Shown in pieces: positions 2,138-33,112 of a DNA stretch of 64,000 bases (positions within the stretch are counted from its first letter, which is position 1; every line of letters begins with the position of its first letter). The DNA comes from Halorussus ruber. Its GTDB lineage: Archaea > Halobacteriota > Halobacteria > Halobacteriales > Haladaptataceae. The position numbers and the translations under genes were made by a program. Below the pieces are notes generated by a model. It was not told the DNA's origin and ran no database searches. It saw only the letters and a program-made list of their open reading frames with translations. The stretch lies in assembly GCF_004765785.1 (NCBI RefSeq), contig NZ_ML219770.1, positions 124,001-188,000 on the forward strand, written 5' to 3'.

Positions 2138-3319
2138 TTAGGACCGTTCGGCGAACACGCCCAGAACGAGGCCTGCGACCAGGAGCGCCCCGGCGAACGC
2201 ACTCGCTCGGCCGACGAACAGGAGGCCGGAGAGGTCGGCGAGCGCGCCAGCGAGTTCCACGAGGAGACCGACGCCGACCAGCGCGACCGACGCCAGCGCG
2301 GTCCGGTTCGAGGCACCGGGGAAGGTGCCGACCGTCGGCGGGTAGAACTGGAAGGTCGCGCCGACGATGGTCAGGCCGAGGAACCCGAGGACGTTGAGCC
2401 GAAAGTGAGCCGCTATCAGTCCGAATCCCGACCCGGCGAACGCGAAGTGGAGGCCGACCAGCACGCCGAGGACGCCCGCCGCGACCCCGGCAAGGACCGC
2501 GTAGAAGCCGACCCGGCGGCGCTCCGAGCGGGCGAACAGGACGGCGTACGCGAGAGCGAAGCCGACCACGGCGAGGGCCTCCAGAACCGCCCCGGCGCGG
2601 AACCACGCCCCGCGGTAGAGACCCCACGCGAGGACCGCGGGGCCGATAGCTCCGGCGGGGAGGACGACCGCGACGAGGAGTTTCGGCGGCGAGGCGACCA
2701 GAAACCGGGGGAAGAGCCGGAAGCCGACCGCGAAAATCAGGAGCGCGGCGGTGCCAGCGGCCAGCAGGTGGGCCGTGCGGGCGAACGAGAGCGACGCGAA
2801 ACCGGGGAGTTCGAGGTGGGTCGCCGCGGTGCCGTAGCTTCCGACGAGGAGATACCCCACGACGACCGGCACGAAGGCGTTGGCGAAGCGGTCTACGGGT
2901 CGGCGGTCGGCGTTGGCCTCGCTGGTACCGGTCTCGCGGCCGGTCGGGTTGTCCCGGAGGGTCCACGCCAGCGCGGCGACGAAGACGACCACGCCCGCGG
3001 TCCAGCAGAGCGAGCCGACGAGTCCCGCGATTTCCGGGATTTCGAGGAGTGGCGCGAGTGCGAGTCCGACTGCGCCGAGCGCGGTGAGCGGGAAGTGGAC
3101 CGCGGGCGCTCGGGGAGTCGCCAGCGTCCGGTCGAAGTACGAGGGCACCAGCGAGTAGGCCTTCCCGAAGACGGTGTGGAGGACGAAGCCGTGGACCGCG
3201 AGCGTGACGCGGACGCCTCTGGGCGTTCCGACGAGCGCCGCAACCTGCCACGCGACGAGAAACAGCGCGCTCGCGGCGACGAAGCGCCGCGCCCACCGCG
3301 AGACGACTCCGGCGCTCAT
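2138..3319 (-). CDS. Polytopic (12 TM) membrane protein, possibly heme-copper oxidase subunit I/NnrS-like
   Basis: 393 residues with about twelve hydrophobic segments spread over the whole length. His-rich helices stand out: VHGFVLHTVFGKAYSLVP in helix 2, a His at the start of helix 3 (PAVHFPLTA), LHFAF in helix 9 and AAHFRLNVLGF before helix 10. Regular His in helices recalls heme-binding membrane proteins of the heme-copper oxidase/NnrS type, but I cannot confirm a full ligand set. It begins 36 bp after a beta-grasp (MoaD/ThiS-like) gene on the same strand, so the two probably form an operon. The cell-membrane location is certain from sequence; substrate or cofactor is not. Confidence 0.75.
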   Translation of the reverse strand: MSAGVVSRWARRFVAASALFLVAWQVAALVGTPRGVRVTLAVHGFVLHTVFGKAYSLVPSYFDRTLATPRAPAVHFPLTALGAVGLALAPLLEIPEIAGLVGSLCWTAGVVVFVAALAWTLRDNPTGRETGTSEANADRRPVDRFANAFVPVVVGYLLVGSYGTAATHLELPGFASLSFARTAHLLAAGTAALLIFAVGFRLFPRFLVASPPKLLVAVVLPAGAIGPAVLAWGLYRGAWFRAGAVLEALAVVGFALAYAVLFARSERRRVGFYAVLAGVAAGVLGVLVGLHFAFAGSGFGLIAAHFRLNVLGFLGLTIVGATFQFYPPTVGTFPGASNRTALASVALVGVGLLVELAGALADLSGLLFVGRASAFAGALLVAGLVLGVFAERS

Positions 3320-3355
3320 CGTGACTCGTCGGCCCCCGCATCGTCTCCAGCCATG

Positions 3356-3802
3356 TCAGCAACAGAAGATAAACGGATACATAAGTCCGACGCGGTCGCC
3401 GTCGCGGAGTTCGGTGTCGAGGCCCGCGAGGTGTTCGTTGAACTGGCCGTTGACCGCCACGCGGGCGTAGGTCCGGGTCTGCTCGCCCTCGGGGTTGGAC
3501 TTCCACGTGCCGGGTAGCTCCTCGGGCGGGTCGGCCCACCCGCTGGTCGAGGCGTCGGCGTCGGTCTCCGCGAGCAGGAGGTCCTTCACGCCGTACTCGG
3601 CGAAGAAGGCGTCGAGGAACTCCCTGAGGGTCGTCCCCTCGAAGGTGAACGAGAGTTTCGACTCGCCGATGGCGGTCCGGACGTGACCGGTGCAACGGAC
3701 CTCGACGGTTGTTTTCGTGATTTCGGTGGTCTCGGCGGTCGTTTCGGTGGCCTCCTCGGTATCGGTCTCCGATTGCTCCACCGTCCGCGCGTCTGTCTCC
3801 AT
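3356..3802 (-). CDS. MoaD/ThiS-like (ubiquitin-like beta-grasp) protein ending in Cys-Cys
   Basis: 148 residues from the ATG at 3802; an upstream ATG at 3847 would add 15 residues. After a Thr/Glu-rich N-terminus of ~35 residues, the rest fits the beta-grasp fold of MoaD, ThiS and SAMPs (VRCTGHVRTAIGESKLSFTF, then TLREFLDAFF, then RDGDRVGLMYP). Family members normally end in Gly-Gly, which is adenylated and made a thiocarboxylate or isopeptide. Here the last residues are FIFCC, so the usual chemistry should not work. The gene precedes a 12-TM membrane protein by 36 bp. Role unknown; the Cys pair could bind metal, form a disulfide or carry sulfur. The fold call is good, the function is not. 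Confidence 0.72.
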   Translation of the reverse strand: METDARTVEQSETDTEEATETTAETTEITKTTVEVRCTGHVRTAIGESKLSFTFEGTTLREFLDAFFAEYGVKDLLLAETDADASTSGWADPPEELPGTWKSNPEGEQTRTYARVAVNGQFNEHLAGLDTELRDGDRVGLMYPFIFCC

Positions 3803-6533: not shown

Positions 6534-6893
6534 ATGACCGCCGACAACCCCATCGAAGGACAGGTGCTTGTCCTCACGGCCGCGAAAGCCAGCGTCGGCG
6601 GCGAGCGCGTGCCGGAACTGGTCGCGGAGGCCCGCCGAGAGTTGGAACCGCGGCGCGACGAACTGCGAAGGAAGTACGAGCGCGTCCACGAAGACGACGT
6701 GCGGGAAATCTTCCTCGCGCCGGAGGGCTTCTGGGTCGAGGTCGGCGACGATATGGGATGGGAGCGCCGAGAGCGCGAGGCGGTAGCCCGCGCGCACGCC
6801 GAGCAACTGCTTCGCGTCGGGCGGCGTGAGGGCCGGGAAAGCGAGTTCGAGACCGCGCTGGAGGTGCGGGAGGCTGTGGTTATCGGGACGTAG
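6534..6893 (+). CDS. Conserved small acidic protein, unknown function
   Basis: 119 residues, mixed alpha/beta, very charged. LEPRRDELRRKYERVHEDD is helical and followed by REIFLAPEGFWVEVGDDM; the C-terminal half is mostly helix. No known motif, signal peptide or membrane segment. It lies 48 bp after the MoaD-like cluster on the same strand and may be its last gene. Codon use is typical of the genome, supporting that it is real. Confidence 0.65.
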   Translation: MTADNPIEGQVLVLTAAKASVGGERVPELVAEARRELEPRRDELRRKYERVHEDDVREIFLAPEGFWVEVGDDMGWERREREAVARAHAEQLLRVGRREGRESEFETALEVREAVVIGT

Positions 6894-6940
6894 GATGTTT
6901 CGAGTTTCGAGGTAAGAGAGATACGTCAGTTGAAATAGAT

Positions 6941-7082
6941 TGGAAGTTTCGAAAGCCCTCGCGCGGCTTGCGGTCGCTGAGCGGGATATTCGCCACGCGC
7001 AGTTCTGCGCGCGGCGAATAGGGCCACGCTCAGACGACCAAGATGAACGCAAGCCGCGCTCGCCCTTTCAGTCCGCCGAGGG
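6941..7082 (+). repeat. Dispersed repeat family B, copy B1 (short, diverged)
   Basis: Begins TTTCGAAAGCCCTCGCGCGG and ends near CCCTTTCAGTCCGCCGAGG. Inner arms are palindromic: GCGGCTTGCGG near the left with AACGCAAGCCGC near the right, and GATATTCGCC with GGCGAATAGG around the centre. It occupies most of the 258-bp gap between two convergent genes. Confidence 0.6.
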
Positions 7083-7151
7083 TTCGGTTGTATCACCGAG
7101 CGAAGCGGGAAGTGGGTCGCGCTCTTTACGTCGCCGCCGTCAAGTCGAGCC

Positions 7152-8420
7152 TTAGTCGTCGTCAGATGTCGCTTCGGCGACTTCTCCCTCGGTCGCGTCG
7201 CGCATCGCCTCGAACCCGCGTTCGAGGTCCGCGATGAGGTCCTTGGGATGTTCGACGCCGACCGAGGCACGCAGGAGCGAGTCGGTGATGCCCAACTCGG
7301 CGCGCTCCTCGGCCGGGAGCGGCGAGTGGGTCATGCTGGCTGGGTGTTCGATGAGGCTCTCGACGCCGCCGAGGCTGACCGCGAGGGTGAACTCCTCCAG
7401 CGCGGCGACGAAGTGTTCCACGGCTTCGAGGCCGCCCGCCAACTCGAAGGAGAGGACGCCGCCGTGGCCGTCCATCTGCTCGTCGGCGAGGTCGTGCTGG
7501 GGGTGGGATTCGAGTCCGGGGTAGTGGACCGCATCGACCAACTCGTGAGATTCGAGGTAGGCCGCGACCTCCGCGGCGTTCTTCTCGTGCTGGCGCATCC
7601 TGAGCGGGAGGGTCTTCATCCCGCGCAGGACCATGTAGGCGTCGAAGGGAGCCATCACGTTGCCCATCCCGACCTGCTGGAGGAAGCCGATTTCCTGTGC
7701 GTAGTCGTCGTCCGAGAGGACCGTCACGCCGCCCAGCGAGTCGCTGTGGCCGTTGATGTACTTCGTGGTGCTGTGGACCACCACGTCCGCGCCGAGTTCG
7801 AGCGGGCGCTGGAAGTACGGCCCCATGAAGGTGTTGTCCACGCCGAGGAGCGCGTCGTGGTCGTCGGCAATCGCGGCCATCTCCTCGATGTCGCAGAGGC
7901 GCAGGAGGGGGTTGGTCGGCGTCTCCATCCAGAGCATGGCGGTCTCGTCGGTCGTGGCCTCGCGGACCTCCTCGGGGTCCGCGGCGTCCACGAAGTCCAC
8001 CGCGACGTTGAGCTTGTCGCGGAACAGCTCCTTGAGCATCGTGTTGGTGCCGCCGTAGAGGTCCTCGAAGGCGACGACGTGGTCGCCGGGTTCGACTGCG
8101 GCCATCAGCGTGGCGACGATGGCGCTGGTGCCCGAGGCGAAGGCCATGGCGTGGTCGCCGCCTTCGAGCGCCGCGACTCGCTTCTCGACCGCGTGGCGGG
8201 TCGGGTTCGAGAGTCGCGTGTAGAGGAACTCGCCGTCGTCGGGTTCCAAGTCTTCGAGCGCGGTATCCATGTCGATGCCCTCGACCGCGTAGGTCGAGGC
8301 GAGGTGAATCGGCGACGTTACGTCGCCCACCCCGCTAGCGAGGTCCGGCTCCTCGCCGTAGGTCACGGACAGCGTTTCGAACCGCTTGTCGTCGGCCCCA
8401 GTCGGTTTTTCAGAGGACAT
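7152..8420 (-). CDS. metB: PLP-dependent cystathionine gamma-synthase/lyase family enzyme
   Basis: 422 residues from the ATG at 8420. Clear Cys/Met metabolism PLP fold: TRLSNPTRHAVEKRVAALEG, the phosphate-binding SGTSAI near residue 97, Asp195 in VDNTF that contacts the pyridine nitrogen, and Lys220 in HSTTKYINGHSD as the Schiff-base lysine. Length is normal. The family covers cystathionine gamma-synthase, gamma-lyase, O-acetylhomoserine sulfhydrylase and methionine gamma-lyase, which cannot be told apart safely by eye; the symbol is a family-level guess. It acts in the cytoplasm in transsulfuration. Single gene with its own 3' region. Confidence 0.88.
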   Translation of the reverse strand: MSSEKPTGADDKRFETLSVTYGEEPDLASGVGDVTSPIHLASTYAVEGIDMDTALEDLEPDDGEFLYTRLSNPTRHAVEKRVAALEGGDHAMAFASGTSAIVATLMAAVEPGDHVVAFEDLYGGTNTMLKELFRDKLNVAVDFVDAADPEEVREATTDETAMLWMETPTNPLLRLCDIEEMAAIADDHDALLGVDNTFMGPYFQRPLELGADVVVHSTTKYINGHSDSLGGVTVLSDDDYAQEIGFLQQVGMGNVMAPFDAYMVLRGMKTLPLRMRQHEKNAAEVAAYLESHELVDAVHYPGLESHPQHDLADEQMDGHGGVLSFELAGGLEAVEHFVAALEEFTLAVSLGGVESLIEHPASMTHSPLPAEERAELGITDSLLRASVGVEHPKDLIADLERGFEAMRDATEGEVAEATSDDD

Positions 8421-8585
8421 ACACAACTACTGTATCTCCGACGCTCGGCCATTTCATTCCTTCGACTGTAAAATGCGCCGAAAGAATGTGTCGGCGGAAA
8501 ATATTACCGTCGTAAATAACGGCAGTATTTGCCGGGTGATTCGGCGAAATTTCATGGCCGGGCAATACTGCATCGAACTGGCGCG

Positions 8586-8619
8586 CGCTCGGCGGACCGA
8601 CGTATCGGTCCGCCGAGCG
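8586..8619 (-). terminator. Perfect 15-bp-stem hairpin after the GNAT gene
   Basis: CGCTCGGCGGACCGA, a 4-nt CGTA loop, then its exact complement. It lies 20 bp beyond the stop codon of the minus-strand GNAT gene. Position and symmetry suggest a transcript end or stability structure; haloarchaeal termination usually relies on T-tracts, and none follows closely, so the role is inferred. Confidence 0.5.
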
Positions 8620-8638
8620 AGTGCATCTGGATTGTCGG

Positions 8639-9187
8639 TCAACTGGCCTTCGCGTAGACGTTCTCGGTCCGTGTGGTCCCGTCGAGTTGGGTCTCGGCCT
8701 CGTCGGTCTTCTCGAACCCGCGTTCCTCGTAGAAAGTGTTGCCCATCTCGTTGTCGGCCAGCACCATCGCTTGCATCGATTCTGCGCCCATGTCGGTCAG
8801 TCGCTCCTCGATGGCGTCGAGGAGACCCGACCCGATTCCCTCGTGCCACCGGTCGGGGTGGACGTAGAGGCGCAGGATGTCGCCCTTCCTTCCGGAAGAC
8901 TCGCTTCGCTCGTCTTCCGACGTTCGAGAAGCGTCGCTTCTCTCACCGTTGTCGGTCGCGCCGTGAGCGAATCCGACGATATCGGCCGATTCGTCGTCCG
9001 TGGCGACCAGACAGACCTGCTCGTCGTCGCCGATGATTCTGGTCATGGTCTCCTCGGCGTACCACTCGCCGACGGCGTCCTCGATGACGGACTCCGGTAC
9101 TGTGTCGGCGTAAGCCTTCGTCCACGCCTCGCGGGCGAGCGACTGGATGGTCGAGATGTCGTCGTTCGTTGCTTCGCGGATTTCCAT
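8639..9187 (-). CDS. GNAT-family N-acetyltransferase
   Basis: 182 residues. N-terminus MEIREATNDDISTIQSLA is the typical first beta-alpha of GNAT; the acetyl-CoA loop is DRWHEGIGSGLLDAIEE (R/Q-x-x-G-x-G type, here HEGIGSG) and the C-terminal pattern is NTFYEERGFEKTDE. A poorly conserved Ser/Glu/Arg insertion sits near residues 82-98, just before the beta4 strand. Probably modifies a small molecule or peptide amine; the target is unknown. Single gene, own downstream hairpin. Confidence 0.85.
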   Translation of the reverse strand: MEIREATNDDISTIQSLAREAWTKAYADTVPESVIEDAVGEWYAEETMTRIIGDDEQVCLVATDDESADIVGFAHGATDNGERSDASRTSEDERSESSGRKGDILRLYVHPDRWHEGIGSGLLDAIEERLTDMGAESMQAMVLADNEMGNTFYEERGFEKTDEAETQLDGTTRTENVYAKAS

Positions 9188-9468
9188 GGTAGATGCTAGC
9201 GTAGAACGGGGTTAGCAGTAGCGGTCGGTTTCGCTCCGGGTCGTCACTGAGGAATGAGATGTTGCATTCTGGCAACAAATGCAATTTCTTAACATCTTAT
9301 TTCGTTGCTCTAGAAAATAGAATTATTGCTCGAAGATGGACCGACGGCTCCCGAGACCGGAGGCAAAAAAGAAACCGAACGCGATTAGGCGTCGCCCGAG
9401 GCCACCCTGCCGCGTGAACGCCGATTCCATCGGAACACTTTCAGTTTTCTCGCTCACTCTGTTTGACC

Positions 9469-9627
9469 ATGACCACCGATTCAGGGAGCGACGCGGACGA
9501 ACGAGAAGAAATCAACTGCGGCGACCCCGAGCTCGCAAACGGCGACTCCGCGAGCGAACGCCTCAACGAAATCGAATTCGGGGAAGACGACGGGAACTCC
9601 GTCGCGGAGATGCGCAAAAAACTGTAA
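9469..9627 (+). CDS. Small acidic protein (52 aa), unknown function
   Basis: Starts MTTDSGSDADEREEINCGDP and ends SVAEMRKKL. Highly acidic with one Cys and no membrane segment. Codon use and the acidic composition are those of genuine haloarchaeal proteins, and the frame is closed cleanly 12 bp before the convergent AOR gene. No known motif. Possible but unproven as a real gene. Confidence 0.45.
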   Translation: MTTDSGSDADEREEINCGDPELANGDSASERLNEIEFGEDDGNSVAEMRKKL

Positions 9628-9639
9628 ATCGGGGTTTCC

Positions 9640-11571
9640 TTAGTCGTCGCCCGAGACCGCCGCGCCACCCGAGCTAACGCCCGTGCCCGGCCCGATGTCG
9701 ATACCCAACGCTTCCAACTTCTCGTCGGGCACGACGCCGTCCTCCCAGCCGCGGACCTCGTAGTACTCGTCTTTCAACTGGTCGAGTTCCACGAGTTGAC
9801 CCTCGGAGCCGCCCTGTCCGGGGATGGCCTTGGGTTCGCCTTCCACAAACCGGACCGGCAGGTCGTCGTCGTCACCGTCGAAGCCGACGAGGTTGTTGTA
9901 GTAGCGTTCGAGGTTGTAGATGCGCTCGCCCGCCTCCATCAGTTCCTCCTCGGAGAAGTCGAGGCCGGTCATGCCGTTGAACTGGAGGACGTACTCCTCG
10001 ATGCCCTCCGCGAAGGCGTTGAACTTGCAGATGTCGAACGAGTCGCTGATGGCGTGGAGGTCCTGGAAGGTCGCACAGAGTTCGCCCTTCCCCTCGGGTT
10101 CGCTGGGGTCTACCTTCTCCGGAATGCCCAGAATCTCCGCCGAGGGCGTGTATCCCCGGAGGTGACACGCCCCGCGGTTCGAGGTTGCGTAGCCGATGGC
10201 CATCCCCTTCATCGACCGGGGGTCGTAGGCCGCCATCGTCTGGCCCTTCACGTCGAGGGACATGTCGCCGTCGCCGAGTTCCTCGGCGGCGCGCATCGAC
10301 CCCTCAGCGAGCAGGTCCGCGAGGTCGTCCTCGCGGTGGGCGATGCGCTCTATCATCTCTATCATGGTGTCGGCGTCACCCCAGTCGATGCCCTCGTCGA
10401 GGTGGCCTTCCTCGGTGGCCTCCATCGCCATCGCCATCGTGTTGCCCACGTCGATGGTGTCGACGCCCATGTCGTTGCACCGGTCTATCATCATGGCGAC
10501 CTTGTCGCGGTCGTCGTTCATCGAGTTCGGGCCGAGCGCCCACGCCGACTCGTACTCGTAGGACTCCATCCGGATGTTGTGGTCCTCCCCCTTGTGGTGG
10601 ACGTCGACCTCGACTTCCTTCTTGCACGCGACCGGACAGGAGTGGCAGGTCGGCTCGTCCACCAGAATGTTCTCGCGGACGTTCTCGCCCGAGACGTTCT
10701 CGGCGTCGATGTTGGGTTCGGAGGGGTCCTCCTCGGCCTCGCTGCTGGTCGAGGTGTTCCGGGCGTTCCGGGTCGGAAGCCCGTCCATCTCCTCGGTCAG
10801 GTTCATCAGGACGTTGGTGCCGTACATCGACAGGCCGCCCTCGTTCGGCGCGGTCACGTCGGACTCCTGAATCACCTGCATCGCCTGCTTGTGGCCCTCT
10901 TGGAAGGTCTCCTGGTCCGCGGGCTGGGGCATCTTGGTCGAGGACTTGACCACGACCGCCTTGAGGTTCTTCGACCCCATCACCGCGCCCGTGCCTCCTC
11001 GGCCCGAGGCCCGGTCGTCCTCGTTGATGATGCAGGCATAGCGAACCTGATTCTCGCCGCCCGGCCCGATGGCCATCACCGAGAGGTTCTTGCCGACCTC
11101 GCCCTCTACCTCGTCGCCTAACTCCTCGATAGTGTTGTGGATGCCGGTGCCCCAGACGTGAGAGGCGTCGCGCAACTCGACCTCGCCGTCCTCCACGACG
11201 GCGTAGACGGGGTGTTCGGCCTCGCCCTCGAACAGCAGGCCGTCGAACCCGGCCCACTTGAGTCGCGCCCCGGACCACCCGCCGTGGTGCGAATCGGTGA
11301 CGGTGTTCGTGAGCGGGGACTTGGTACAGATGGCGATGCGACCGCTCATTACGGTCTGGGTCCCCGTCAGCGGCCCGTTCATGAACGCCAACAGGTTATT
11401 CGGTCCGAGGGGGTCCACGTCCGGCCCCTGGTCGAAGACGTACTTCACCCCGAGTCCCCGCGCTCCGATGTACTTCCGGGCGTCCTCGTCGTCGATGCCC
11501 TCGTATGCTACGTCCTCGTCGCTCAGGTCGATTCGAGCGACGTGGTCTTGGTATCCGCCGAGGTCAGTCAT
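9640..11571 (-). CDS. aor: Tungsten-containing aldehyde ferredoxin oxidoreductase
   Basis: 643 residues, usual length for the family. AOR_N signature at the start (RIDLSDEDVAYEGIDDEDAR, KYIGARGLGVKYVF) and GPLTGTQTVMSGR, ESGRGGTG-like DRASGRGGTGAVMGSKNLK in the cofactor-binding part; [4Fe-4S] ligands in CHSCPVACKK with a later Cys in DICKFNAF; GMTGLDFSEEELMEAGERIYNLER is the classical AOR C-domain motif. Family knowledge: a bis-tungstopterin plus 4Fe-4S enzyme oxidising aldehydes to acids with ferredoxin. The MoaD-like genes at 3.4 and 5.9 kb may supply pterin cofactor sulfur. Leading TATA element close to the ATG suggests a short or absent leader. Confidence 0.93.
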   Translation of the reverse strand: MTDLGGYQDHVARIDLSDEDVAYEGIDDEDARKYIGARGLGVKYVFDQGPDVDPLGPNNLLAFMNGPLTGTQTVMSGRIAICTKSPLTNTVTDSHHGGWSGARLKWAGFDGLLFEGEAEHPVYAVVEDGEVELRDASHVWGTGIHNTIEELGDEVEGEVGKNLSVMAIGPGGENQVRYACIINEDDRASGRGGTGAVMGSKNLKAVVVKSSTKMPQPADQETFQEGHKQAMQVIQESDVTAPNEGGLSMYGTNVLMNLTEEMDGLPTRNARNTSTSSEAEEDPSEPNIDAENVSGENVRENILVDEPTCHSCPVACKKEVEVDVHHKGEDHNIRMESYEYESAWALGPNSMNDDRDKVAMMIDRCNDMGVDTIDVGNTMAMAMEATEEGHLDEGIDWGDADTMIEMIERIAHREDDLADLLAEGSMRAAEELGDGDMSLDVKGQTMAAYDPRSMKGMAIGYATSNRGACHLRGYTPSAEILGIPEKVDPSEPEGKGELCATFQDLHAISDSFDICKFNAFAEGIEEYVLQFNGMTGLDFSEEELMEAGERIYNLERYYNNLVGFDGDDDDLPVRFVEGEPKAIPGQGGSEGQLVELDQLKDEYYEVRGWEDGVVPDEKLEALGIDIGPGTGVSSGGAAVSGDD

Positions 11572-29329: not shown

Positions 29330-30454
29330 TCAGACCGAGAGGACCGACCGGTACCGCTCGCCTGCTTCGTCGTCGGCCGCGATTGCTTCTCGAATCGTCT
29401 CGGAAACCCACTCGCCGTCCGCTTCGATTCTGTCGAACTCGTCGGGCAGGTACCGCCGATAGACCGGCAGGCGCTCGCGCAGTGGGACGCCCGCCTCGTC
29501 GGCGATGTCCTCCAGTTCCTTCAGCGCGGGCCACTTGTACTCGGGATTGATGTGGTCGTCGGTGACCGGCGAGACGCCGCCCAAGTCGTCCACGCCGCAG
29601 TCGAGCAACTCGCGGGTCGGCGAGAGGTTCGGCGGGACCTGCACCGAGACTTCTTCGGGCAGGCACTCGCGGGCCATCGCCACGACGCGGCGCATGGTCT
29701 CGACCGACGGCCGTTCGTAGCTCGACCGCTCGTTGGGGACGACGTTCTGGACGATGACCTCCTGCACGTGCCCGTAGCGCTCGTGCATCTCGCGGATGGC
29801 GAGCAGACTCTCGGCTCGGTCGCGCCACTCCTCGCCGATGCCGACGAGAATCCCCGTGGTGAACGGGACCCCCAACTCGCCCGCGTTCCGGATGGTGTTC
29901 AGGCGCTGGCCGGGGTTCTTGACTCGGGGTCCGGCGTGGGCACCCACGTCGGCGGTGGTTTCGAGCATCACGCCCATCGAGGCGTTCACGTCCGCGACGA
30001 GTTCCATCTGCTCGCGGGTCTGGTCGCCGGGGTTGCTGTGGGGAAGTAGGCCCTCGTCGAGTGCAATCTCGCAGACCTCGCGGAGGTAGGTATGGATGGA
30101 GTCGTGACCCCACTCCGCGAGTTGGTCGTGAATCTGCGTGTACCGGTCGTCGGGGTCGTCGCCGAAGGTGAACAGCGCCTCGGTACATCCGGCGTCCGCG
30201 CCTGTTTGGAGAATGTCTCGGACCTCCTCGGGCGAGAGGAGCGACGCCTCGCCCGGCGGGTCGAAGTAGGTGCAGTAGGTGCAGGTGTACCGACAGGCGG
30301 TGGTGAGGGGAACGAAGACGTTCTTGGCGAAGGTGAGTTCGTCGGCGGGTTCCACGTCCTCGGGGGTGATGGAGAGGAGGCGTTGTATTTCGGACTCCTC
30401 GAAGTCGATGGAAATGTCGTACTCGTCTCCTCCCGGGATGTCGGCACCTGCCAT
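29330..30454 (-). CDS. cofG: FO synthase subunit 1 (radical SAM)
   Basis: 374 residues. Radical SAM cluster Cys54, Cys58 and Cys61 in TTACRYTCTYC; GCTEALFTFGDDPDDRY, LLPHSNPGDQTREQM, SMGVMLETTADVG and GLVGIGEE-like ILVGIGEEWRDRA, VQNVVPNERS. Partner of CofH in making the F420 deazaflavin core. In other haloarchaea I recall cofG lying directly beside cofC; here a two-gene AT-rich insert separates them. Confidence 0.95.
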   Translation of the reverse strand: MAGADIPGGDEYDISIDFEESEIQRLLSITPEDVEPADELTFAKNVFVPLTTACRYTCTYCTYFDPPGEASLLSPEEVRDILQTGADAGCTEALFTFGDDPDDRYTQIHDQLAEWGHDSIHTYLREVCEIALDEGLLPHSNPGDQTREQMELVADVNASMGVMLETTADVGAHAGPRVKNPGQRLNTIRNAGELGVPFTTGILVGIGEEWRDRAESLLAIREMHERYGHVQEVIVQNVVPNERSSYERPSVETMRRVVAMARECLPEEVSVQVPPNLSPTRELLDCGVDDLGGVSPVTDDHINPEYKWPALKELEDIADEAGVPLRERLPVYRRYLPDEFDRIEADGEWVSETIREAIAADDEAGERYRSVLSV

Positions 30455-30495
30455 CCTCCGGAACTACGCGACGGCGAGGAAAAGGGTTTGGAAGT

Positions 30496-31116
30496 TCAGT
30501 CGGGCGTTTCGAGGAGGGTCCGCTGGAGGAGTCTGTCGAACGAACCGCCATCGAGTAGTGACGCCAGTTTCCGGGCCTCGTCTTCCGGGCCGTCCTCGTC
30601 CTTGTCGATACCTGCGGCGACTTCCAAGTCCTCGCGGAACGCGAGAATCGTGAATCCGGTTCGGGGGTCGTTACCGCGCTCGTTTTCCAGCGTGACGTCC
30701 TTGACGACCATCTCGCGGCATCGGCCACCACGCTCGACTTCGCCAATTCGTAGTCCTGCGCCGCGGTGACGCTGTCGGACGCGCTCCCGAATGTCGTCCA
30801 CGAAACTGTCGATATCGGTGGTATCGAGGTCCACGAGGACGTATTTTTCCACCGGTTTGGTCGCCAAGTCGCGGATGACGAACGAGAACCCACGCTTGAG
30901 GTTCGGCTTGCCGTTCTCCGATTTGACCAGCAGGTTGTGGTTGTTCCATCCACCCAAGAACGACCGAATCTTGTCGGACTCCTCGTGGAGTAGTTCGTCC
31001 TTCGAGAGATTCCCGATTACGAGGTCGTCAAGCTGTGGATTATCGTGATAGTTGTCGAAAAACTTTCGCATGAAGCGTACGTCACGCTCTCCCTCGCTGA
31101 AGACTATCTTCGACAT
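30496..31116 (-). CDS. TOPRIM-like nuclease-family protein, partner of AAA ATPase
   Basis: 206 residues. The start KIVFSEGERDVRFMRKFFDNY fits the first motif of TOPRIM domains (conserved Glu8), and YVLVDLDTTD supplies the D-x-D (Asp96, Asp98) on the next conserved strand. This resembles the metal-binding part of OLD nucleases, GajA C-terminus and PARIS AriB. The C-terminal half is charged, with no other motif. It begins 5 bp after the ATPase gene. Inference: a nuclease or effector released or steered by the ATPase. Slightly higher GC than the ATPase but still set in the inserted segment. TOPRIM call is moderate because motif spacing is judged by eye. Confidence 0.65.
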   Translation of the reverse strand: MSKIVFSEGERDVRFMRKFFDNYHDNPQLDDLVIGNLSKDELLHEESDKIRSFLGGWNNHNLLVKSENGKPNLKRGFSFVIRDLATKPVEKYVLVDLDTTDIDSFVDDIRERVRQRHRGAGLRIGEVERGGRCREMVVKDVTLENERGNDPRTGFTILAFREDLEVAAGIDKDEDGPEDEARKLASLLDGGSFDRLLQRTLLETPD

Positions 31117-31121
31117 CGAGC

Positions 31122-32408
31122 CTAAATCCCTCGAAGGTCCAGATGCAGGTCTTTCAGGTGGTGTTCGGCCTCCTCGTAGGTCGATACGTCCGCCCCGAAG
31201 TCGTCCATCTTGACCAGCGAGAACTCGTCTTCGAGATATTCGCGTTTCTCCTCGGGCATATCCATGAAGAAATCTTTGATGAAATCGTGGTCGTGCGTCG
31301 TGATGAAGAACTGGATGTTCTCGTCGCGTGCGAGGTTAATGAGGAAGTGGACGAGTTCGGCGACGTAGCCGGGGTGCATGTGAGTCTCCGGTTCTTCAAT
31401 AAGGACGATTTGGTCCTCTACTTCGTCGTCCATGAGTTCCCAGAGGAGACCGACCATGGCTTTGAAACCGTCACCCATGAAATCGTAGGGAATCGGTTGT
31501 TTCTCGCCATCTTCCGTTTCAAAAATCAGGGTATCTAAACTGAAGGTTTTCAGTCTATCTACGATACCTTTCTCTTTGATGAAGTCGCCAATGTCATCTA
31601 TTTTAACCGACTCTTGACTATCGTTGGTTTCATTAATACTCTTGGTAAGAATTGTTGATTTGATAAAGGTAGCCGAGTTTCCCGATTTTGGTTGTTTTAT
31701 AAACGTATTTTCAGGGGGAAGTCCCAATTCTACTCTTCTAGAATAAAATTCAAAATAGCCTCTTGGGCCTCGTTGATTGTGGTAGAAACCATGATCATCA
31801 ATGTCCTCGTTTTCTTGGAATTCATTCATTACATCCTTTATGATTCTTTTTATGAGCGAGGTGCTCTTTTTCCCACCCATAAAACAGGGATATTCTCTAT
31901 CTGCTGCAGAAAGTATTAAAATTTCATCTTGAAGCTCTTCAGTTGGCTCCCTAACCATATTTTCTTTTATCGCATCTACAACTGAGTTACGGATATCCTC
32001 GTAGATCTGCCTTGGTGCCCCTGTTTTTCCCTCTTCAGAGGAAATCTCCGTTCCCTCTTCCGTAGTAAATTGTGTGAGAGTCATCTGAAACCCGCCAATA
32101 TCAGAAGCGATTTCAAAAAACAACCTCTCTGCTTCCGATAGGGATGGCTTTCTTATCTCAATTTTAAGATTTTCTGAACCACATTTTCCAGAGATTTCCG
32201 TGTAATCGAAATCCCTATGAATTACGGAATCAAGGTTATTGCCGAACTCCTGAAGATTTATTGGCTCAAAAAGCAGATCAACGGCCTCCAAAAACGAGGT
32301 CTTCCCAGTGTTGTTCCTCCCAGTAATCAGATTAATATCGGTAGGCTCGAACTCGACATGCTCCAACCCCTTGAACCCCTCAACCTCGATGTGTTCGAGT
32401 TTCGTCAT
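31122..32408 (-). CDS. AAA-family (OLD/ABC-type) ATPase, likely defence component
   Basis: 428 residues. Walker A GRNNTGKTS at residues 30-38, Walker B DQIVLIEEPETHMHP and the sensor His in FITTHDHDFIKDF near residues 325-375, arranged as in OLD, AriA and other ABC-type nuclease ATPases. The middle (about 100-290) is family-specific and strikingly AT-rich, with runs such as KSTILTKSINETND; the N-terminal 30 residues (KLEHIEVEGFKGLEHVEF) are the usual first strand. Followed after 5 bp by a TOPRIM-like gene. Placement between cofC and cofG and foreign base composition indicate horizontal gain. It could also be a stand-alone repair ATPase. Confidence 0.82.
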   Translation of the reverse strand: MTKLEHIEVEGFKGLEHVEFEPTDINLITGRNNTGKTSFLEAVDLLFEPINLQEFGNNLDSVIHRDFDYTEISGKCGSENLKIEIRKPSLSEAERLFFEIASDIGGFQMTLTQFTTEEGTEISSEEGKTGAPRQIYEDIRNSVVDAIKENMVREPTEELQDEILILSAADREYPCFMGGKKSTSLIKRIIKDVMNEFQENEDIDDHGFYHNQRGPRGYFEFYSRRVELGLPPENTFIKQPKSGNSATFIKSTILTKSINETNDSQESVKIDDIGDFIKEKGIVDRLKTFSLDTLIFETEDGEKQPIPYDFMGDGFKAMVGLLWELMDDEVEDQIVLIEEPETHMHPGYVAELVHFLINLARDENIQFFITTHDHDFIKDFFMDMPEEKREYLEDEFSLVKMDDFGADVSTYEEAEHHLKDLHLDLRGI

Positions 32409-32470
32409 CGCTGTTCAGTTACACCTACCTTGGCCCTCATGATATTAAAACGGTGGCCTTCTCGCGGTCC

Positions 32471-33112
32471 CTACTCCCGAACCACGCCAACCCGACTCTC
32501 GTCGCTCGCCAACTCGAACCCCGCCCCGCGCAGCCACTCGAACGACGCGCCGGAGCCGTGAATCAGCACCTCCGCCAGGTCCGCGCGCTCGTCCACGTCG
32601 GTCGCCAGTCGGTGGGAGTCCACGACCGATACCGCGGCCCCGACCTCGCGGGCCGCCCGGCGGTGGTCGAGGTAGGAGGTCCCGTGGTAATCTACGCGAA
32701 AGTCGGGGTGGCGCGCGACCAGCGCGTTCGTCCCGCCGCCGCGGCCGGGCGCGAGGACCACGTCTCCTTCGCATTCGAAGAGGCGCGCGAGCGCCTCGGG
32801 GGTCGCCAGCGCGAGGTCGGCCATCACGACCGCGACCGACTCGTCGGTCGCTCCTTCGGTCGCGGTTTCCGCGAGTTCGCCCGCGAGGAGCGCGTTGACG
32901 GCCTCGGTCAGCGGGCGCTCGTCCACGACGACGGGCGCGTCCGCCTCGACCGGCGCGGTCGCAAGGACCTCGGGTTCCCGGCCGGTCGCCCGCACCGCGG
33001 CCAGCACGTCTTCGAGCATCGCGTCGGCGAACGCCCGGCGCTCCTCGGGCGAGAGCGCGTCGGCTAACCGGGTCTTGGGGTCGCTGGCCGCGTAGGGCAC
33101 GACGACTCGCAT
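32471..33112 (-). CDS. cofC: 2-phospho-L-lactate guanylyltransferase
   Basis: 213 residues. [20 protein letters not shown] is the nucleotide-binding start of Cof[33 protein letters not shown] and [17 protein letters not shown] follow the family pattern. Makes the activated lactate precursor of the F420 side chain. The orthologous neighbourhood in other haloarchaea (cetZ, membrane protein, cofC, cofG) is kept here apart from the inserted ATPase pair. Confidence 0.92.

What the first reader, a model, noticed from the sequence alone, without database searches (positions are those of the whole stretch)
30496..32408. AT-rich AAA ATPase + TOPRIM-like pair inserted between cofC and cofG: candidate antiviral system
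Seen: two genes 5 bp apart, an ABC/OLD-type ATPase (GRNNTGKTS, IEEPETHMHP, THDHDF) and a small protein with Glu8 and DLD at 96-98 that fit TOPRIM. The ATPase gene is AT-rich unlike neighbours. Established: OLD, Gabija (GajA) and PARIS (AriA/AriB) combine such an ATPase with TOPRIM; cofC and cofG are adjacent in other haloarchaea as I recall. Inferred: a horizontally gained defence unit. The TOPRIM partner is short (206 aa) and separate, unlike GajA, so it may be a new subtype.
Basis: partly seen in the sequence, partly recalled or inferred. Interest (0 to 1): 0.82.

Follow-up and report, generated by a model that had tools for sequence, protein, structure and literature searches.

The report
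Split ATPase–nuclease candidate archaeal defence pair
Two adjacent genes in a salt-loving archaeon look like an alarm protein and a nuclease that may stop virus infection; relatives carry, lack or reshuffle the pair at the same chromosome position, so it can be tested as an archaeal immune system.

Summary
Window 31122-32408(-) encodes a 428-aa ABC/OLD-type ATPase; five bases on, 30496-31116(-) encodes a 206-aa partner with the acidic pattern of OLD-type TOPRIM nucleases (E8, D12, D96, D98, [S/T/D/N]-x-E165). The pair sits between cofC and cofG.

It is not core: found in 8 of 28 family genomes. In 391 Halobacteria genomes the ATPase model hit 17 and the partner model the same 17 plus one contig-edge fragment; the 23 copies are all adjacent, and 15 of them were not in the models.

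New here: the eight cofC-cofG copies are mosaics. The ATPase insertion (86-290) falls to 31% identity where tail and partner are 95% and 86%, and the reverse also occurs. Tail type, partner class and, in Halorussus, the 42 bp before cofG go together.

Best reading: a horizontally variable, PARIS-like sensor-nuclease pair with exchangeable sensor and effector. It fails the published PARIS rule (no DUF4435); PADLOC's PDC-M38 is the nearest two-gene model, met by relatives' partners only. TOPRIM rests on motifs and weak profile links; fold search did not confirm it. Defence is untested.

The parts
31122..32408 (-). ABC/OLD-type ATPase, 428 aa (Walker A GRNNTGKTS, FMGDGFK, Walker B LIEEPE, TTH, C-terminal LHLDLRGI; motif names recalled)
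31539..32153 (-). ATPase residues 86-290: mostly helical insertion between the two halves of the ABC head; hypervariable, AT-rich module, proposed sensor
31125..31253 (-). ATPase C-terminal tail, residues 386-428, ending LHLDLRGI; its type goes with the partner class
30496..31116 (-). partner, 206 aa, OLD-type TOPRIM nuclease candidate (E8, D12, K65, G69, D96, D98, E165)
32443..32450 (-). TATA-like TTTTAATA about 35 nt before the ATPase start, similar in other copies (read by eye)
30455..30496 (-). 42 bp before cofG; in the Halorussus copies its sequence class goes with the partner class
29330..30454 (-). cofG, right flank of the insertion
32471..33112 (-). cofC, left flank of the insertion

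Best explanation
A two-gene antiviral (or anti-mobile-element) unit that works like PARIS. Shown: an ATPase with an SMC/Rad50-like head and intact ATP-site motifs; a partner with the metal-ligand pattern of OLD-type TOPRIM nucleases; constant linkage; patchy presence at one chromosomal slot in one family; modular exchange. Inferred, in order: the ATPase holds the nuclease inactive, using its conserved C-terminal tail as contact; its variable insertion senses a viral product; sensing frees or activates the nuclease, which cuts host or viral nucleic acid (tRNA or DNA, undecided) and stops growth before virus release. The pair moves between species by homologous recombination through the flanking cof genes, and insertion and effector-plus-tail modules are exchanged separately. 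I give about 0.75 to a defence role, 0.5 to sequester-and-release rather than one joint nuclease complex, 0.35 to tRNA as target.
For: ATPase: AAA_15 95.6 bits, AAA_21 88.7; best PADLOC models AriA 4.9e-28, PDC-M38A 1.7e-25, AbiLi 2.8e-25; model (pLDDT 81.5) aligns to SMC/Rad50 heads at Z up to 20.7, and Foldseek's first rows are retron PtuA chains (E 9.7e-11, TM 0.39). Partner: E8, G9, K65, G69, D96, D98, E165 in 17 of 17 aligned members, D12 in 16 of 17, residue 163 S/D/T/N in 8/4/3/2; TsOLD ligands are E377/D431/D433 and D381/S478/E480 (PMC7049728 passages), the same E-x3-D, DxD, [S/T/D]-x-E pattern; profile against TOPRIM halves of six haloarchaeal OLD-like proteins E 3.4e-5 but hhalign probability only 45%, three control profiles (shallower) 0.38-0.95. 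Linkage: 23 of 23 copies, 15 of them not in the models. Gain/loss: 7 changes on the cofG tree, 276 of 500 shuffles as low. Modularity. dN/dS 0.06-0.28 where computable. In 3 broken copies of genus g65 the partner is broken each time and the ATPase is intact in two, as expected if the ATPase restrains a toxic partner.
Against: No activity or virus data. The window partner matches no Pfam family up to E 10; Foldseek found no match at E<=0.001 in PDB or viral models, and VIA-align's best rows are P-loop and Rossmann-like folds at Z 8.5 and below. Defence neighbours are few: of 66 neighbour proteins scanned (of 114 extracted), each of the 25 PADLOC families shown (of 59) matched one protein, e.g. 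a type I methylase and a type II restriction enzyme, without a background control. No relative of the ATPase in viral contigs or of the partner in phage or plasmid records; one partial ATPase hit in plasmids. Archaeal OLD ATPases can be non-defensive: Cran1 acts in the cell cycle (PMC12796447).
Confidence: 0.68

Rival explanations
1. A single ATP-gated nuclease complex, like a split OLD or GajA: the ATPase does not sequester but is needed for cleavage, and activity is set by nucleotide level or DNA ends rather than by release of a free nuclease.
For: OLD and GajA carry the same two domains in one chain, and Cran1's nuclease half is inactive without its ATPase (PMC12796447 passages). Profile link of the partner to the TOPRIM half of OLD-like proteins.
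Against: Genes are separate in all 23 copies found in 17 of 391 genomes; a variable insertion fits a protein trigger better than a nucleotide sensor (inference).
Confidence: 0.3
2. A toxin-antitoxin or element-stability pair without antiviral function: the ATPase restrains the nuclease and the locus is kept by addiction.
For: Patchy distribution; broken partner with intact ATPase in two of three broken copies.
Against: Purifying selection and exchange of the insertion module at a fixed chromosomal place are not needed for addiction. Almost no hits on plasmids. A pure addiction module should resist loss, yet the cofG tree needs about 7 gains or losses in one family.
Confidence: 0.15
3. A host DNA-repair or cell-cycle ATPase-nuclease, as with Cran1 of Sulfolobales.
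For: SMC/Rad50-like head; precedent Cran1.
Against: Cran1 is vertically inherited and essential by that paper; this pair was not found in 20 of 28 family genomes (one of these, G012, is only 62% complete).
Confidence: 0.07

Closest known systems
PARIS (AriA/AriB)
   Same: Separate adjacent genes; AAA_15/AAA_21-type ATPase; small TOPRIM-type partner; no helicase.
   Different: Partner is not DUF4435; the ATPase's AriA match is only slightly above PDC-M38A and AbiLi. Rousset et al. report PARIS in bacterial and archaeal genomes (PMC9122126 passages); the Cran1 paper found split class 4 restricted to bacteria in its data set (PMC12796447 section 7).
PADLOC candidate PDC-M38 (ATPase + DUF3226-type partner)
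   Same: Same gene order and similar sizes; bacterial partners found through the ATPase (L075, L074) match PDC-M38B at 4.1e-52 and 6.8e-36, and L075's ATPase PDC-M38A at 1.8e-90; the Halorussus partner L003 matches PDC-M38B at 4.8e-7.
   Different: The window partner has no PDC-M38B match at E<=1; archaeal partners align with extra sequence after helix 1, modelled at low confidence as a strand and helix.
OLD class 1 / Gabija GajA / retron OLD nucleases
   Same: Same two catalytic domains and the same metal-ligand pattern.
   Different: Two genes instead of one; next-door genes are cofC and cofG, not a helicase or reverse transcriptase.
AbiL and MADS ATPase-containing systems
   Same: ATPase models AbiLi and mad3 match all 17 aligned ATPases at E<=1e-6; mad4 matches the window partner weakly (E 0.0038).
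   Different: mad4 is the only PADLOC model that the window partner matches at E<=1, so no AbiLii match. Other MADS genes were not searched for in the genome.

Membership tests
PARIS | ATPase with AAA_15 >= 32 or AAA_21 >= 27 bits (Rousset et al. rule, PMC9122126) | tested here: met
   95.6 and 88.7 bits; rule read
PARIS | adjacent DUF4435 protein, >= 27 bits | tested here: not met
   no Pfam match of the window partner up to E 10; 1 of 17 family members weakly (L060, E 0.015, 15.5 bits)
PARIS | AriA hexamer sequesters AriB; trigger releases a tRNA-cutting dimer | not testable with these tools
   known for AriAB from PMC12409363 passages and PMC11455837
PDC-M38 (PADLOC) | match of the ATPase to PDC-M38A | tested here: inconclusive
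   E 1.7e-25, but AriA models score higher and 98 models match at E<=1e-6
PDC-M38 (PADLOC) | match of the partner to PDC-M38B | tested here: not met
   window partner none at E<=1; of 7 other archaeal partners tested, L003 (4.8e-7), L059 (1.7e-5) and L067 (6.7e-7) match, L010, L060, L063 and L065 do not
DUF3226 (PF11536) | Pfam gathering score 27 bits | tested here: not met
   window none; 7 of 17 members match at E<=10, best L067 with 27.4 bits
OLD-type TOPRIM nuclease domain | E-x3-D/E, DxD and [S/T/D]-x-E metal ligands | tested here: met
   E8, D96, D98, E165 in 17 of 17, position 12 D in 16 and E in 1, position 163 S 8, D 4, T 3, N 2 (window D); ligands read in PMC7049728. That E165 is the equivalent of TsOLD E480 is my reading; it was not in register in the profile alignment
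OLD-type TOPRIM nuclease domain | TOPRIM fold | tested here: inconclusive
   AF2 pLDDT 80.9, alpha/beta with E8 after strand 1 and DxD at the end of the fourth strand; no TOPRIM chain recognised among the Foldseek/VIA rows shown; the mixed alignment A5 (with bacterial DUF3226 rows) hits 2p62 E 7e-6 and 1t6t E 0.0085, which I recall, without a call, as a DUF3226 protein and a TOPRIM protein
OLD class 1-3 | ATPase and TOPRIM in one chain | tested here: not met
   two ORFs; separate in all 23 copies
Gabija | GajB UvrD-like helicase next to GajA | tested here: not met
   neighbours are cofC and cofG

The most novel reading that the evidence does not exclude
An archaeal innate-immune locus that changes specificity by cassette exchange at a fixed chromosomal slot: the ATPase's sensor insertion is swapped independently of a second cassette made of ATPase tail, TOPRIM effector and cofG promoter, both carried in by homologous recombination through cofC and cofG. 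It would be a split OLD system of archaea distinct from PARIS, with relatives in Halobacteria, Nanohaloarchaea, Aenigmatarchaeota, Micrarchaeota and Thermoplasmatota.
Probability: 0.35. Interest if true: 0.75.

Novelty: new variant of a known kind. Interest (0 to 1): 0.56.

Why it matters
The listings of my paper searches showed no archaeal split ATPase-TOPRIM pair with tested function, and the window partner falls below the published PARIS rule and the PADLOC and Pfam models, so detection that needs the partner would miss it (inference). The natural mosaics are ready-made chimeras: similar effector and tail with different insertions (G000 and G008), and similar insertions with different effectors (G000 and G001). 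That makes it directly testable which part senses the virus and which part must match the nuclease. Pair-free Halorussus species give natural controls.

Tried and rejected
Gabija: rejected, no helicase next door. PARIS by definition: rejected, no DUF4435. Core gene of haloarchaea: rejected (8 of 28 family genomes; partner in 18 of 391 class genomes, one of them, G376, a fragment at a contig start). Insertion sequence: no repeat pair flanks the unit at 30300-32700 and no other convincing ORF lies between cofC and cofG in the window. Bacterial promoter/terminator scan: 2 and 2 found, 1.8 and 3.1 expected, uninformative in an archaeon. Whether the two partner classes at the cof site form one clade: undecided (AU p 0.148). 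ATPase N-terminal 85 residues: tree unresolved (AU p 0.27 and 0.08).

Structure: no TOPRIM chain that I recognise was listed for the partner by Foldseek (PDB, viral) or VIA-align. PDB sequence search with the archaeal alignment A1 and with the bacterial DUF3226 alignment A7 found nothing; only the mixed alignment A5 hit 2p62, 1t6t and, at 0.082, 4ude. Profile comparison of A3 with A7 covers 27 columns (probability 71%); A3 does not recover bacterial DUF3226 proteins by hmmsearch (E 2 or worse at Z 20000).

Searches with no match: viral contigs with the ATPase (14 pattern stretches, 0 relatives); partner in plasmids and phages. Papers: DUF3226 with TOPRIM 0, PDC-M38 or DUF3226 0.

Mended after checking: the ORF between cofC and cofG in genera g2 and g3, which I had taken for an S26 signal peptidase by eye, has no Pfam match at E<=0.001 in the four copies tested; I now call it signal-peptidase-like by eye only.

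Caveats on counts: the AU groups were named after the identity table was seen, used a plain LG+G4 model, and in the middle-segment tree two long branches (G005, G019) meet. G007's second cofG hit and partial ATPase hits in longer proteins were set aside. dN/dS comes from my own Nei-Gojobori script; synonymous sites are saturated in the middle segment of three of six pairs. Gene calls are a home-made heuristic; 66 of 114 extracted neighbours were scanned, leaving out the g65 loci L148-L151, L153, L154, L156, L157 and a few doubtful ORFs. The flank comparison used 21 of 28 family genomes, and the start of cofG in G025 was probably misplaced there.

Full report
WHAT IS THERE. On the minus strand lie, in order, cofC (32471-33112), a 428-aa ATPase gene (31122-32408), a 206-aa gene (30496-31116) and cofG (29330-30454). 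The two middle genes are 5 bp apart. A TATA-like TTTTAATA stands about 35 nt before the ATPase start and a similar stretch recurs before other copies (by eye). 500-bp GC drops to 0.372 inside the ATPase gene against 0.643 for the window. GC3 is 52% (residues 1-85), 37% (86-290), 67% (291-385) and 74% (386-428), 73% in the partner and 86% in cofG. In all eight cof-site copies the middle segment has the lowest GC3 of the gene, 36-58%, against 76-93% for cofG.

THE ATPase. Pfam AAA_15 (95.6 bits) and AAA_21 (88.7 bits). Many defence ATPase models match: AriA 4.9e-28, PDC-M38A 1.7e-25, AbiLi 2.8e-25, then GajA, Old and HEC models. The predicted model (pLDDT 81.5, pTM 0.81) gives retron PtuA chains first in Foldseek (E 9.7e-11, TM 0.39) and aligns to SMC and Rad50 heads with Z up to 20.7 (rmsd 2.8 over 256 residues). 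The halves of the head are about residues 1-86 and 285-428; residues 87-285 are a mostly helical insertion at the place of the SMC/Rad50 coiled coil (my reading). GxNNxGKT, MGDGF, EEP, H345, TTH and the C-terminal DLRG are invariant in 17 aligned archaeal members.

THE PARTNER. No Pfam family matches it up to E 10. In 17 archaeal homologues E8, G9, K65, G69, D96, D98 and E165 are invariant, position 12 is D in 16 and E in 1, and position 163 is S in 8, D in 4, T in 3 and N in 2. For TsOLD the metal ligands are E377, D431, D433 and D381, S478, E480; for P2 OLD they include D541 and E543 (PMC7049728, passages). The pattern E-x3-D, DxD, [S/T/D]-x-E is thus the same. Profile comparison with the TOPRIM halves of six OLD-like proteins from related genomes gave E 3.4e-5 for one comparison, though only 45% probability, with E8, the glycine and DxD in register but not E165; three unrelated, shallower profiles gave 0.38-0.95. 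Seven of 17 members match DUF3226 at E<=10 (best L067, 27.4 bits against a cut-off of 27) and three OLD-like_TOPRIM weakly (best 0.012). An alignment widened with bacterial DUF3226 partners hits PH0156 (2p62, E 7e-6) and 1t6t (0.0085). Against this, fold comparison is inconclusive: the model (pLDDT 80.9) has a strand-helix order that I find compatible with TOPRIM plus one extra strand-helix of low confidence, but Foldseek listed no PDB match at E<=0.001 and VIA-align's best row is a designed P-loop fold at Z 8.5 (rmsd 3.2, 127 aligned).

DISTRIBUTION AND LINKAGE. ATPase query: 13 of 59 relatives matched, of which 10 full-length family members and three partial hits in longer proteins; partner query: 9 of 59; the tenth partner (G052) stands next to its ATPase. 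With profiles, 18 of 391 Halobacteria genomes have the partner (one, G376, only a fragment at a contig start) and 17 of 391 have the ATPase at E<=1e-40: the same 17. They hold 23 copies, all with the ATPase directly upstream. Two genomes of one genus (G165, G209) hold four copies each; three of these eight are broken by stops or frameshifts, the partner in all three, the ATPase in one. Named relatives include Halorussus halobius, H. amylolyticus, Halorubrum californiense, Natrarchaeobius chitinivorans, Halopiger goleimassiliensis and MAGs of Nanohaloarchaea, Aenigmatarchaeota, Micrarchaeota and Thermoplasmatota. I call genus g1 Halorussus because contig lengths of G001 and G011 equal those of the two Halorussus records. 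More distant bacterial loci pair an ATPase of about 345-400 aa with a partner of about 200-220 aa; the three partners tested are DUF3226 (1.2e-38 to 3.5e-70), and the two tested with PADLOC match PDC-M38B.

THE SITE. All 8 pair-bearing genomes of the family (28 searched) hold it between cofC and cofG (tblastn of both genes). In G008 a TrmB-type regulator gene and in G019 the ORF described next stand between cofC and the ATPase. Of the other 20 genomes, ten have cofC and cofG adjacent (about 35-300 bp between tblastn ends), eight have an ORF that looks signal-peptidase-like by eye between them (no Pfam match in the four copies tested, one of which is the G019 copy), one (G006) has an archaeosine-synthase-type gene before cofG (DUF5591, TGT, PUA) with no cofC in the 1500 bp read, and one (G012, 62% complete) ends at a contig edge. 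On a cofG tree presence needs 7 changes, at least 6 by starred branches; shuffled labels need 7.2 on average (one gene, several weak forks). So the pair is gained and lost like an accessory gene.

MOSAICISM. Pairwise identities of the eight cof-site copies conflict by segment. G000 against G008: N 59, middle 31, C 82, tail 95, partner 86, cofG 86%. G000 against G011: N 72, middle 60, C 68, tail 58, partner 30, cofG 83%. The middle tree groups G000, G002, G001, G011 (100/99); the partner tree and the C-plus-tail tree group G001, G011, G005 (100/100 and 100/99). The partner data reject the middle's grouping (AU p 2.7e-6), the C-plus-tail data too (8.2e-5), and the middle data reject the partner's grouping (0.008) (groups named after seeing the identities). 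Synonymous divergence differs as well: for G000-G002 dS is 1.87 in the middle, 0.69 in the C part and 0.69 in the partner, which recombination explains and faster amino-acid change alone does not. The 42 bp before cofG, compared in 21 of 28 family genomes, fall into classes: G000, G002, G008, G015 (partner class alpha; scores 21-36 of 42 among themselves); G001, G011, G005 (class beta) together with the pair-free G014 and G010 (15-32); and the other seven pair-free Halorussus compared (15-30). Scores between these classes are 13 or less; alpha flanks score 8-15 with G020 of genus g3. G019, whose partner groups with alpha (94/92), carries the flank of its own genus. G014 and G010 may thus be sites that lost a beta cassette; the opposite order is not excluded.

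HOW IT PROBABLY WORKS. In PARIS an AriA hexamer holds AriB, and viral proteins such as Ocr make it release AriB, which dimerises and cuts tRNA (PMC12409363 passages; PMC11455837 read whole). By analogy the variable insertion would be the sensor and the conserved tail, which changes type with the partner, the contact to the nuclease. Both assignments are inference from covariation; substrate and trigger are unknown. The main rival is one joint ATP-gated nuclease complex as in OLD and GajA.

WHAT IS KNOWN. The window pair meets the ATPase half of the published PARIS rule and fails the DUF4435 half. Its partner fails PDC-M38B although some relatives meet it. The Cran1 study places split class 4 OLD in bacteria only in its data set and has an uncharacterised Halobacteriales clade U8 (PMC12796447 section 7); whether U8 contains this family I could not check. 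A survey of archaeal immunity in 7747 genomes has no occurrence of the words TOPRIM or PARIS in its main text (PMC12988326, find). I therefore call it a new variant of a known kind.

Noticed in passing
L044, L046-L048, L050, L051, L053, L054 (cofC-cofG gap): A conserved ORF of about 210-247 aa, signal-peptidase-like by eye, sits between cofC and cofG in 8 pair-free genomes of genera g2 and g3 (in L051 apparently split); G019 has both it and the pair, and G020 seems to keep only remnants. Four copies tested, including G019's, have no Pfam match at E<=0.001.
   Followed up: partly
L033 (G010), cofC-cofG gap: The 250-bp gap seems to hold a remnant of the TrmB-type gene that stands beside the pair in the related genome G008, plus a beta-class cofG flank: a possible scar of a lost cassette (by eye).
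   Followed up: partly
L036 (G006): A 471-aa ORF with DUF5591, TGT_C2, PUA and TGT matches (archaeosine-synthase type) stands before cofG, with no cofC in the 1500 bp read.
   Followed up: partly
L158 (G362), 6840-9889: The pair is followed by a type I restriction methylase and the start of an ORF that looks like a specificity subunit by eye.
   Followed up: partly
genomes G165 and G209 (loci L148-L151, L153, L154, L156, L157): Four pair copies per genome at different places, three of the eight broken.
   Followed up: partly
L002 (G002), 2847-3546: cofC is matched in three tblastn pieces in different frames, so it may be frameshifted in this genome or assembly.
   Followed up: no
window, about 900-2200: A second AT-rich stretch (five 500-bp windows under 0.50 GC) outside the finding.
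   Followed up: no
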